NCBI GenBank assembly: GCA_018715595.1
Contig: DVLI01000015.1
Location: 1-54,517 of the forward strand
Direction of reading: 5' to 3'
From: Candidatus Caccoplasma merdavium
GTDB lineage: Bacteria; Bacteroidota; Bacteroidia; Bacteroidales; UBA11471
Length of the DNA stretch: 54,517 nt
The stretch's first letter is position 1. Every line of letters begins with the position of its first letter. The position numbers and the translations under genes were made by a program. The notes under the pieces were generated by a model. That model did no database searches. It worked only from the letters and a program-made list of their open reading frames with translations, and was not told the DNA's origin. This document shows positions 33,116 through 37,899 of this stretch, piece by piece.

Positions 33116-33163
33116 CAACGCTTTTCGGGAAAACGGTGCATGCACCATTCCCGTTCAAGGCAA

Positions 33164-33249
<86 letters not shown>

Positions 33250-33256
33250 GATAAGT

Positions 33257-33296
33257 GGTGTAAATCAAGCATTTGCAAGATTTACACCCTTTTTTT
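33257..33296 (+). terminator. Terminator after tRNA-Ser
   Basis: GGTGTAAATC and its exact complement around a 12-nt loop, followed by CTTTTTTT. Confidence 0.8.
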
Positions 33297-33375
33297 ACAC
33301 CCAAGAATGTAAGTTTGGGTGTTTTAGCTATATTAAAGACCATGCATAATACAAAGTATGGGATTGTAAACAATG

Positions 33376-35639: not shown

Positions 35640-35658
35640 TTGAAATCTTAGGGATAAC
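35640..35658 (+). repeat. Left inverted repeat (IRL) of the methyltransferase inversion cassette
   Basis: TTGAAATCTTAGGGATAAC, exactly complementary to 36009-36027. It encodes the shared peptide E-I-L-G-I-T in the silent frame. Confidence 0.93.
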
Positions 35659-35866
35659 AAAGACATGGTTTGGTAGTGCTTCTAAAATTTATCCCGAACA
35701 AATCCAAGTTGACCGTCAAGGGAAAAAATCCAAAGTAACAAAACTCAATGATGGGGCTGTATTGCATCATCCACAAATCCCTCAGAATGAGACTTATTAT
35801 ATAGTTGATGGAAAGTATTACACTCAAGTATATGCAAGAGTCCTTATCAGGCATATCGGATTATAA
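35642..35866 (+). pseudogene. Silent alternative C-terminus of the methyltransferase (inverted orientation)
   Basis: An open frame without start codon on the strand opposite the methyltransferase. It opens EILGIT, as the active gene does at residues 321-326. A different sequence follows (KTWFGSASKIYPEQ...), and it ends in QVYARVLIRHIGL, homologous to the active STYARLLIRKL. There is no stop over 74 codons until TAA at 35864. Inverting 35640-36027 would join it in frame to the methyltransferase body. It is therefore an unexpressed cassette rather than a decayed gene. Confidence 0.9.
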
Positions 35867-36985
35867 TTTGCGAATGAGTAATCGAGCATATGTTGAAGTT
35901 AAGGAGCCATTATACCTGATAGCACCTCTCCGATTCAAATCTGTCCAATTAGGAGTATCAGAGATGACATATTCTTTGGTTTTTAACCCCCATTCATTTC
36001 CTCTATCAGTTATCCCTAAGATTTCAAATTGCTCCGGACAATACTTATCCAAGAAGGAAATAGGAACCCCCATAACGCCATCATAATCTGAGGGAATAGC
36101 ATCTGTAAAAGGAACTTCTATGGCATCGTAATTATCATAATGGTCATAAGAGACTTTCCCTTTTATCTCTTTGTGTCTTGAAAAACGAAGATTGTCTGCC
36201 ATGGTCATCAAAGGAAGTGGTTCATGACGCCGCCCATGGTCTATGTTAGTAAACCACCGTACACCTTTTACCCTAATAAACTTTCTCCCATTCTCATCAA
36301 TTCTCCATCCTGCCGCATTCAAAGGATACTCATCGGGAACTTCAAATTCCCTATCTCCACTATGAATAGAATATCCCATCCACATTTTATTTTCTTTAAT
36401 TAAAGGGAATGTTTCTTTGTATGTTACAGCATTCATATTTCCGATAATAATGAACTTTTTATTAGCTGAAACAATCCAAGCTAAAAATTCTCGAAAGAGA
36501 GAAAATGGAGGATTAGTAATAATAATATCTGCTTCATCACGTAATTCTGAAACTTCTTTGCTTCTAAAATCACCATCTCCATTAAGATATTCCCAATGCA
36601 GATCATCAATGTTTATTCTTCCATCACCAGATAAATCTTTATCAAGAATGAATATCTTTCCTTTTGTTTGGGCCTTTGACGGGTCAAATTGTGGAGCATC
36701 TATTTCAAACAAAGTGGGTTCAGACAATAGCCTCATTTTCTTTGCATCTGGTGCATAGCTTGTAGAAATCAACTTTTTCAATCCAAGTTCATCGAACTTG
36801 GCGGCGAAATAACGGGTAAAGTTACTCCATTCAGGGTCATCGCAAGGTAATAAAACTGTCTTGCCCCTGAACACGTTTGGGTCATATTCAAGGTATGCAT
36901 TCATTTCCACCTCAATGTCGTGGAATTGAGTATAGAATTCATCGTTTTTAGCTGCCTTCGCTTCCTTCAAATTACTATTTGCCAT
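35861..36985 (-). CDS. EcoRI-family adenine-specific DNA methyltransferase, with invertible 3' end
   Basis: A 374-residue N6-adenine methyltransferase of the EcoRI methylase family. Features are the start region NDEFYTQFHDIEVEMNAY, VLLPCDDPEWSNF, and the catalytic motif IITNPPF (N158-F161). Residues 321-326 (EILGIT) are encoded by the right inverted repeat. Residues 327-374 are the currently expressed variable C-terminus, which would be replaced by 68 other residues on inversion. It sits between an XRE regulator and a DUF262-HNH nuclease. The exchanged region may carry target recognition (inference). Confidence 0.93.
   Translation of the reverse strand: MANSNLKEAKAAKNDEFYTQFHDIEVEMNAYLEYDPNVFRGKTVLLPCDDPEWSNFTRYFAAKFDELGLKKLISTSYAPDAKKMRLLSEPTLFEIDAPQFDPSKAQTKGKIFILDKDLSGDGRINIDDLHWEYLNGDGDFRSKEVSELRDEADIIITNPPFSLFREFLAWIVSANKKFIIIGNMNAVTYKETFPLIKENKMWMGYSIHSGDREFEVPDEYPLNAAGWRIDENGRKFIRVKGVRWFTNIDHGRRHEPLPLMTMADNLRFSRHKEIKGKVSYDHYDNYDAIEVPFTDAIPSDYDGVMGVPISFLDKYCPEQFEILGITDRGNEWGLKTKEYVISDTPNWTDLNRRGAIRYNGSLTSTYARLLIRKL
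36009..36027 (-). repeat. Right inverted repeat (IRR) of the methyltransferase inversion cassette
   Basis: Reverse complement of IRL, 19/19 identical, lying inside the methyltransferase coding sequence. The distance between outer ends is 388 bp. Confidence 0.93.
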
Positions 36986-37015
36986 CGTTTCTTCTTTTTG
37001 TTGTTTACTAAGCTA

Positions 37016-37213
37016 TCAACTAATTTTATTAGGTATTAACAAGTCTCTGACATCAACATTCAGAATGTCTGCAATTTGATATAAAACGGGAATGGGAGGC
37101 TGCACCTTGTTCGTAGCATACAGATTGACCATATTGAAAGTCTTTCCAAGTCTGTTTGCCAATTCCGTTTGGCTAATTCTTTTAGCCTCCAACACCTCTT
37201 TTATTCGGTTCAT
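37016..37213 (-). CDS. XRE-family helix-turn-helix regulator (possible controller protein)
   Basis: A 65-residue Cro/C1-type DNA-binding protein with a helix-turn-helix at ISQTELANRLGKTFNMVNLY and a C-terminal helix pair ending in DLLIPNKIS. The longer frame to 37273 would start upstream of the promoter -7 box, so the ATG at 37213 is preferred. It lies 30 bp upstream of the methyltransferase gene, the place and size of controller (C) proteins in type II restriction-modification systems. Control of the operon is inferred from context only. Confidence 0.85.
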   Translation of the reverse strand: MNRIKEVLEAKRISQTELANRLGKTFNMVNLYATNKVQPPIPVLYQIADILNVDVRDLLIPNKIS

Positions 37214-37239
37214 ATTCACATTCTTTTGTCTGATGGGTA

Positions 37240-37247
37240 CAAAAGTA
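37240..37247 (-). promoter_or_regulatory. -7 box of the restriction-modification-like operon
   Basis: Minus-strand TACTTTTG, 26 bp upstream of the XRE start; no clear -33. An XRE operator could overlap it but was not resolved. Confidence 0.6.
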
Positions 37248-37404
37248 TAAAATTTAATTTGGTAAATGCGCATTTTTCAAAGGAAAGTATTACCTTTACA
37301 TCACGTAACCCGTTTAAGCGAAAAACAATCGCAAATATATTATATTAGATAGTTGCACTAATTAGAGGGTTTTTGAGGTAGTATAAAATATTTTGACTTT
37401 GATT

Positions 37405-37899
37405 ATGGAACAGAGTTTTGCGTTACCTTCGGAGCTGACCAAGACCGAGCGTTACGGGGAGTTTCTTCGGCAGTTCGAGGTGCTGGTCGAGGGTATTGAC
37501 GACGAGATAAGTGTCATGGCCAATGCCTCGGCGGCGTTGCGAGAGGCTTTCGGCTTTTTCTGGGTCGGCTTCTATCGGGTCAAGGGCAATGAACTTGTGC
37601 TGGGCCCGTTCCAGGGCAGCGTGGCCTGCTATCGCATAAAGCACGGCCGCGGCGTGTGCGGCACGGCCTGGGCGCAGGGGCAGACGGTTGTCGTGCCCGA
37701 TGTCGAGCAGTTCCCGGGACACATAGCGTGCAGTTCGCTGTCGCGTTCCGAGATTGTCGTCCCGATTTTCTCGGCCGGCGAGAACCCCGAGGTGCGCAGT
37801 GTGCTCGACATCGACAGCGAGCATTATGCCACCTTCGACGATACCGACCGCTGTTACCTCGAACAGTTGGCCGCCATTCTTTCCCGCACGCTCTATTAG
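37405..37899 (+). CDS. msrC: Free methionine-(R)-sulfoxide reductase (GAF domain)
   Basis: Reduces free L-methionine-(R)-sulfoxide with thioredoxin as electron donor. The 164-residue GAF protein has FWVGFYRV, the fRMsr cysteines (ACYRI, GVCGTAWA and HIACSS), and SEIVVPIF..VLDIDSEH. The in-frame TTG at 37393 is less likely than the ATG at 37405. It is the first normal-composition gene after the AT-rich island, so the island's right edge lies between about 37214 and 37404. Confidence 0.94.
   Translation: MEQSFALPSELTKTERYGEFLRQFEVLVEGIDDEISVMANASAALREAFGFFWVGFYRVKGNELVLGPFQGSVACYRIKHGRGVCGTAWAQGQTVVVPDVEQFPGHIACSSLSRSEIVVPIFSAGENPEVRSVLDIDSEHYATFDDTDRCYLEQLAAILSRTLY

What the first reader, a model, noticed from the sequence alone, without database searches (positions are those of the whole stretch)
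35640..36027. Invertible cassette that swaps the C-terminus of an EcoRI-family DNA methyltransferase
Seen: perfect 19-nt inverted repeats at 35640-35658 and 36009-36027; the right one is inside the methyltransferase gene and encodes EILGIT. On the opposite strand the left repeat opens a start-less frame with the same EILGIT, then a different 68-residue C-terminus ending VYARVLIRHIGL, homologous to the active end TYARLLIRKL. Flipping the 388-bp segment gives an intact 1185-nt gene (394 aa instead of 374), with frame and stop both working out. The two stop codons abut tail to tail at 35861-35866. Inversion of specificity modules is established for type I hsdS genes. I know of no described case of one-sided C-terminal switching in an EcoRI-type methylase, but could not search.
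Basis: partly seen in the sequence, partly recalled or inferred. Interest (0 to 1): 0.93.

Follow-up and report, generated by a model that had tools for sequence, protein, structure and literature searches.

The report
Shufflon swapping a methyltransferase's DNA-reading tail
A Bacteroidales DNA-methyltransferase gene carries a second, silent tail end in a segment bounded by inverted repeats; relatives hold the same segment in the opposite orientation, and a neighbouring recombinase likely flips it, which would change the DNA sequence that the enzyme marks.

Summary
Exact 19-bp inverted repeats bound a 388-bp segment holding the active C-terminus of an EcoRI-family methyltransferase and, on the other strand, a start-less alternative C-terminus. 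Inversion gives an intact 394-aa gene; a public protein equals that product except for K83R. Two related loci carry the 388-bp segment the other way round: 80-82% identical flipped, 46-48% unflipped, baseline 47%.

All 11 distinct methyltransferase loci found with such a recombinase have an inverted repeat at the same codons, with 2-4 cassettes each; of 71 comparable loci without it, 1 has a 13-bp repeat there, unrelated. In two other genomes contigs stop exactly at the repeat. Public proteins with 323 identical scaffold residues carry different tails.

Nuclease divergence does not follow tail type (nucleases 99-100% identical with tails 8-11% identical), so the tail probably sets specificity for the whole system. 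No methylome or inversion assay was possible. I call it a C-terminal specificity shufflon in a type II-like restriction-modification system, a new variant of the known type I hsdS inversion principle.

The parts
35640..35658 (+). Distal recombination site (repeat), between the silent tail and the nuclease gene
   Evidence: Exact 19-nt inverted copy of the site inside the gene; 13-bp core TTGAAATCTTAGG shared by the cassettes of relatives
36009..36027 (-). Recombination site inside the methyltransferase gene, encoding EILGIT
35640..36027 (.). 388-bp segment predicted to invert
   Evidence: In silico inversion gives a 394-aa frame; found in opposite orientation in L051 and L061
35861..36985 (-). 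EcoRI-family adenine methyltransferase, active form, 374 aa (tail type DRGNEWGLK)
   Evidence: PF13651 453.6 bits; PADLOC MTase_II 313 bits
35642..35866 (+). Silent alternative C-terminus without start codon (tail type KTWFG)
   Evidence: its fusion to the scaffold equals public protein P0016 except K83R and matches PF13651 as fully as the active form, 451.5 bits
34451..35620 (-). Nuclease, GmrSD_N + HNH, 389 aa
   Evidence: Pfam; PADLOC REase_II 303 bits
33459..34412 (-). Tyrosine recombinase, 317 aa, predicted to invert the segment; catalytic motifs GMRIGE, HGLRHT, LGH..Y present
   Evidence: PF00589 97.9 bits; motifs; linkage
37016..37273 (-). Small helix-turn-helix protein upstream of the methyltransferase, possible regulator
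   Evidence: HTH_3 37.4 bits; similar ORF near the methyltransferase in several relatives

Best explanation
This is a two-cassette shufflon: the methyltransferase gene ends inside one of two inverted 19-bp repeats, a second in-frame tail lies silent on the opposite strand, relatives carry the same segment the other way round, and the adjacent tyrosine recombinase is predicted to flip it, which would replace the tail and likely change the DNA sequence recognised. Shown: repeats, reading frames, the flipped arrangement and its product in other sequences, linkage of recombinase and cassettes, and independence of nuclease from tail type. Inferred: that this recombinase does the flipping; that the tail is (part of) the target recognition domain; that the nuclease takes its target from the methyltransferase or otherwise tolerates the change. 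The crossover lies in codons (F)EILG(IT), where crossing over keeps the frame wherever it falls within the shared core.
For: Opposite orientation: segment of L061 and L051 is 0.796 and 0.817 identical to the window's when flipped, 0.476 and 0.462 when not, shuffled baseline 0.470. P0016 equals the predicted flipped product but for K83R. Recombinase linkage: inverted repeat of 13 nt or more at the boundary in 11 of 11 recombinase-bearing loci, 1 of 71 without, Fisher 9e-13. Cassettes 2-4 per locus, each read from the core into a different tail. Exact core DNA in 10 of 10 recombinase-bearing loci that encode FEILG/FEIIG against 2 of 55 others (one of the two, L012, ends at the core, so its status is unknown). 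Contig ends at the core in L012 and in two contigs of G298. Scaffolds: of 136 distinct 300-aa scaffolds among 184 proteins, 6 carry more than one tail type, one of them five; pairs with 0 of 323 scaffold differences. Both forms match PF13651 over 1-344 of 345. Predicted fold: the site is strand 320-325, ahead of the variable part and a last strand 368-373; the catalytic fold aligned to solved methyltransferases, M.TaqI included, mostly spans residues 8-249, so the tail lies outside it.
Against: No reads, so no direct sight of both orientations in one culture; the window's assembly holds one. No biochemical proof of a specificity change. 130 of 136 scaffolds show one tail type in the proteins listed (capped lists). 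L051 keeps cassettes but its recombinase frame lacks the HxLRxT and LGH..Y motifs; L010's silent tail has an aberrant end. The solved-structure search found no sequence match for the methyltransferase and Foldseek none at E 0.001 or below, so the tail's role rests on inference. The model of the flipped form is poor (pLDDT 67.5) and was not used.
Confidence: 0.82

Rival explanations
1. The tails swap but do not change DNA specificity; they alter stability, partner binding or activity (for instance one form inactive).
For: Specificity was not measured. Nuclease identity does not follow tail type, as it would if the tails had no bearing on the target.
Against: The tails are highly diverse and occur as the sole tail of recombinase-free systems (listing), so each is probably functional. 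Both forms match the family profile fully. Switching between many unlike tails on one scaffold is what specificity modules do (general knowledge of type I hsdS).
Confidence: 0.12
2. Tails are exchanged between strains by ordinary homologous recombination or transfer; the repeats are relics and the segment no longer flips.
For: Recombinase-free loci also carry varied tails on similar scaffolds. The window assembly shows one orientation. L051's recombinase looks damaged.
Against: Opposite strands, abutting stops and constant 388-bp spans in WIN, L051 and L061; core kept at DNA level only with the recombinase; contigs break at the core in two genomes.
Confidence: 0.08
3. The recombinase is the integrase of a small island beside tRNA-Ser and has nothing to do with the repeats.
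For: The window's recombinase lies near a tRNA-Ser at 33164-33249 in a low-G+C stretch.
Against: No shared word of 11 nt or more between the tRNA region (33150-33300) and the far border 36900-37600. None of 11 related loci has a tRNA next to the recombinase; two have a tRNA elsewhere on the stretch. Recombinase and inverted cassettes go together in 11 of 11 loci.
Confidence: 0.04

Closest known systems
Phase-variable type I hsdS inversion (Streptococcus pneumoniae cod locus with PsrA; PMC4948785 search listing, PMC7096588 abstract)
   Same: A tyrosine recombinase gene in the restriction-modification locus, inverted repeats inside coding sequence, exchange of DNA-recognition parts.
   Different: There the exchanged part belongs to a separate specificity subunit, HsdS; here it is the C-terminal end of a one-protein EcoRI-family methyltransferase paired with a GmrSD_N+HNH nuclease.
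Plasmid R64 shufflon with Rci (recalled, no call)
   Same: Several alternative C-termini behind one constant N-part, site-specific tyrosine recombinase, sites at the junction codons.
   Different: R64 varies a pilus adhesin; sites and recombinase were not compared here.
Domain movement of target recognition domains in Helicobacter pylori (PMC3077401, PMC3983042; search listing only)
   Same: Recognition parts move between methyltransferases and change specificity.
   Different: There the listed abstracts speak of movement of sequences within and between genes; here a dedicated recombinase and inverted cassettes are linked to the gene.
GmrSD-type nucleases (PMC4619093 and PMC12707154, passages)
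   Same: The nuclease has the GmrSD_N (DUF262) domain and an HNH domain.
   Different: GmrSD proper is modification-dependent and carries DUF1524; this one matches Pfam HNH PF01844 and the PADLOC REase_II model and sits with a methyltransferase.

Membership tests
EcoRI_methylase family (PF13651) | Full-length match above the curated cut-off | tested here: met
   453.6 bits, profile 1-344 of 345, cut-off 26.4; flipped form P0016 451.5 bits
Type II restriction-modification system | Methyltransferase and endonuclease genes side by side, matching type II models | tested here: met
   PADLOC MTase_II 313 bits, REase_II 303 bits
Type II restriction-modification system | Endonuclease with target recognition of its own, matching the methyltransferase | tested here: inconclusive
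   Nuclease identity is independent of tail type over 90 loci, 4005 pairs, Spearman 0.03, which argues against it; no biochemistry
Phase-variable type I RM (invertible hsdS) | hsdS, hsdM and hsdR genes | tested here: not met
   Pfam of the locus shows EcoRI_methylase, GmrSD_N+HNH, Phage_integrase and HTH only; works alike but is no member
Tyrosine-recombinase invertible element (inverton) | Recombinase with catalytic motifs next to inverted repeats | tested here: met
   PF00589 97.9 bits; HGLRHT and LGHSNVATTLNLY; exact repeats
Tyrosine-recombinase invertible element (inverton) | Both orientations found | tested here: met
   In relatives and at protein level; not in one clone
Shufflon | Three or more alternative segments behind one constant part | tested here: met
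   Met in 6 relatives with 3-4 core sites at 0 or 1 mismatch (L013, L021, L039, L050, L051, L129) and L094 with a variant core; the window itself has two
GmrSD type IV restriction | Cleavage of modified cytosine DNA | not testable with these tools
   Domain architecture only

The most novel reading that the evidence does not exclude
A recombinase-driven C-terminal shufflon gives a one-protein EcoRI-family methyltransferase a library of interchangeable recognition tails, and its GmrSD_N+HNH nuclease has no target of its own but follows whichever tail is in place, so a type II-looking pair can rewrite its whole restriction and methylation specificity in one inversion without killing the cell.
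Probability: 0.5. Interest if true: 0.9.

Novelty: new variant of a known kind. Interest (0 to 1): 0.82.

Why it matters
Inversion of specificity parts is known for type I systems; here it appears in a one-protein EcoRI-family methyltransferase paired with a nuclease that does not co-vary with the tail. That makes two questions testable: how a type II-like nuclease survives a switch of its partner's target, and whether gut Bacteroidales use such loci to vary both phage restriction and methylome. The array also supplies natural swaps of a short recognition tail (38-74 residues counted from EILG) on a constant scaffold, useful for learning EcoRI-family recognition and for engineering specificity.

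Tried and rejected
Chance repeat: rejected (0 of 3000 shuffles with separated arms; 29 of 3000 if overlapping palindromes count). Integrase of an island: the tRNA-Ser lead was followed and found no border repeat. Orthologous recombinases elsewhere: 47-53% identical recombinases in other Bacteroidales and plasmid records; of those, 10 stretches were fetched or already held (L139-L141, L144-L150) and none holds a methyltransferase match above 60 bits; several lie at contig ends, and the loci in G065 and G262 were not looked at in context. Viral contigs with P0002 gave 4 weak relatives only. The core 16-mer occurs in 2 of 393 genomes of the order: the window's own and G295, whose single site has no methyltransferase match near it. 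A 13-bp repeat in recombinase-free L054 is not the core and its other arm lies 2.3 kb away. L022 has the cassette pair with a variant core but no recombinase in sight, because its contig ends inside the nuclease; it is not among the 71. Loci table: 112 considered, 101 used; L093 (same stretch as L021), L078, L109, L111-L113 and L115-L119 dropped for duplication, low score or missing motif. 'Without recombinase' means no P0002-like match above 150 bits within 6 kb; other recombinase families were not sought, and weak matches of 27-28 bits exist in L025 and L044. In one search two end bands run the other way or are thin: scaffold 0.5-0.6, nuclease 0.368 for 9 same-tail pairs against 0.435 for 101 different-tail pairs; scaffold 0.9 and over, 0.889 for 34 against 0.860 for 7; pairs are not independent. 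Structure of the flipped form: poor model, not used. Fold comparison tests the catalytic part only. Literature searches in the held library listed no paper on inversion in an EcoRI-family methyltransferase; the intragenic-inversion paper tried by DOI is not held, so absence from print is not shown.

Full report
Observation. The repeats, frames and stop codons are as described. The left repeat was first read in the wrong frame and then in the right one. Flipping 35640-36027 turns the 374-aa methyltransferase into a 394-aa one. The repeat is unique to these two places in the genome and is not expected by chance.

Setting. On the minus strand the order is HTH protein, methyltransferase, [silent tail on the plus strand], nuclease with GmrSD_N and HNH domains, tyrosine recombinase. 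PADLOC calls the two enzymes type II methyltransferase and type II restriction enzyme. The stretch of about 33.0-37.5 kb has 37-47% G+C while neighbouring 500-nt blocks from 30.5 to 33.0 and from 37.5 to 39.5 kb have 52-63%. The genome shares its order with G298, whose contig C10 is identical at its tail to, and as long as, a Tidjanibacter MAG contig, L031; Tidjanibacter belongs to Bacteroidales.

Relatives. From genome, viral and plasmid collections I gathered 112 methyltransferase loci, window included, and used 101 (genome contigs gave the best 80 of 473). In the usual form, without recombinase, nuclease and methyltransferase touch or nearly touch: 69 of 82 gaps are 30 nt or less, some negative because open frames were measured stop to stop. 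Eleven loci carry a recombinase like P0002 (399-721 bits): the window, L010, L013, L021, L039, L040, L050, L051, L061, L094, L129. In all eleven a gap of 170-1237 nt separates methyltransferase and nuclease, and all eleven have an exact inverted repeat of 13-20 nt that starts at the (F)EILG or FSILG codons. Of 71 recombinase-free loci with nuclease and 2.5 kb in view, one has a 13-nt repeat, and that one is not the core.

Cassettes. The core TTGAAATCTTAGG opens each cassette, and the frame read from it gives a different tail: types DRGNEWGLK, KTWFG, MCENEDLY, QTQGDSG, SLELA, SLELG, RADANIG, RFRKGND, ATESEGKG, IDRYIEN, CNRGIDQ. Numbers per locus are 2 (window, L010, L040, L061), 3 (L013, L021, L050, L051, L129; L094 with a variant core) and 4 (L039, one site with a mismatch). 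Cassettes lie inverted or, in L039 and L050, also in direct order. L010's silent tail has an aberrant end. The same tail types occur as the only tail of recombinase-free systems (listing).

Orientation. In L010, L013, L051, L061 and L129 the KTWFG-type tail is active (written KAWFG in L051) and a DRG or DRQ tail is silent; in the window and L094 it is the reverse. The inner segments of L061 and L051, both in a 388-bp span, match the window's when flipped (0.796, 0.817), not otherwise (0.476, 0.462; baseline 0.470), while sequence outside keeps its direction (upstream 0.693 and 0.709; downstream 0.856, and 0.587 for L051, which has an extra cassette there). Protein P0016, whose source the database does not show, is the predicted flipped product with K83R.

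Signs of ongoing switching. Contig L012 ends at ...CAATTTGAAATCTTAGGG, and contigs C8 and C10 of G298 both end at ...CAATTTGAAATCTTAGG, one from the nuclease side and one from the gene side. A repeat shorter than an assembler's usual word length breaks contigs only if different sequences follow it in the reads, so I read this as mixed orientation or mixed strains (inference). Among the 101 loci, two contigs (L012 and L031, which is G298:C10) end within 30 nt of the boundary. Public proteins: of 136 distinct 300-aa scaffolds in 184 proteins from two capped lists, six carry two or more tail types and one carries five.

DNA-level constraint. Loci that encode FEILG or FEIIG have the exact core in 10 of 10 cases with recombinase and in 2 of 55 without (L012, which ends at the core, and L025). 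The amino acids alone do not require these codons.

Nuclease. Over 90 loci and 4005 pairs, nuclease identity does not track tail identity (Spearman 0.03; against scaffold 0.30). At scaffold identity 0.65-0.70 the mean nuclease identity is 0.622 for 102 same-tail pairs and 0.619 for 986 different-tail pairs. L021 and L129 have nucleases at 1.00 and tails at 0.08; L010 and L021 0.99 and 0.11. A nuclease with its own matched target should follow the tail. I therefore favour a nuclease that takes its target from the methyltransferase, or senses methylation state; both are untested.

Recombinase. Motifs HxLRxT and LGH(9)Y are present in 10 of the 11 loci and in L142; L051's frame lacks both. Relatives at 47-53% identity sit in other settings. 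Whether this recombinase makes the inversions is inferred from linkage.

Known work. Type I hsdS inversion by PsrA is the nearest (PMC7096588, abstract read; PMC4948785, listing). A review of phase variation (PMC11868660, passages) names type I and III systems as phase-variable and cites large inverton surveys; a review of restriction-modification (PMC12707154, passages) had no occurrence of 'inversion' or 'invertible'. Ten searches listed nothing on EcoRI-family enzymes, but subscription papers are mostly not held, and inverton catalogues may include such loci without comment.

Verdict. The invertible tail is real and part of a recombinase-linked family of 2-4-cassette loci. New variant of a known kind; the unexplained fit between a switching methyltransferase and an unswitching nuclease is the most interesting part.

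Noticed in passing
window 33164-33249: tRNA-Ser (tga) between the recombinase and the flanking genes; no repeat of it at the far border of the low-G+C stretch.
   Followed up: partly
G000:C11:7429-8388 (L009): A second EcoRI-family methyltransferase, 48% identical, with a related nuclease downstream in the same genome.
   Followed up: no
L010, L021, L040, L129 between the cassettes and the nuclease: An extra open frame of about 285 residues, nearly the same in all four, inserted in the locus; its family was not identified (one search failed on a wrong frame).
   Followed up: no
L010 5728-5752 (reverse-complemented locus), L021 5940-5964, L040 9415-9439: A shared 25-nt palindrome AGTTGACTACAA-N-TTGTAGTCAACT in the gap; perhaps a terminator or another site.
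   Followed up: no
L064 and L096, methyltransferase C-termini: Simple repeats in the tail (ERERERER; TEQNRTEQNR), which might allow slippage switching in recombinase-free loci.
   Followed up: no
L139, L140, L144-L150: Recombinases 47-53% identical to the window's, often near contig ends, in other gene settings; they may serve other invertible loci.
   Followed up: partly
L081 and L102: Two EcoRI-family methyltransferase frames in tandem ahead of one nuclease.
   Followed up: no
L011: Closest fixed-form relative has its methyltransferase frame split in two, and a gap of 804 nt before the nuclease.
   Followed up: no
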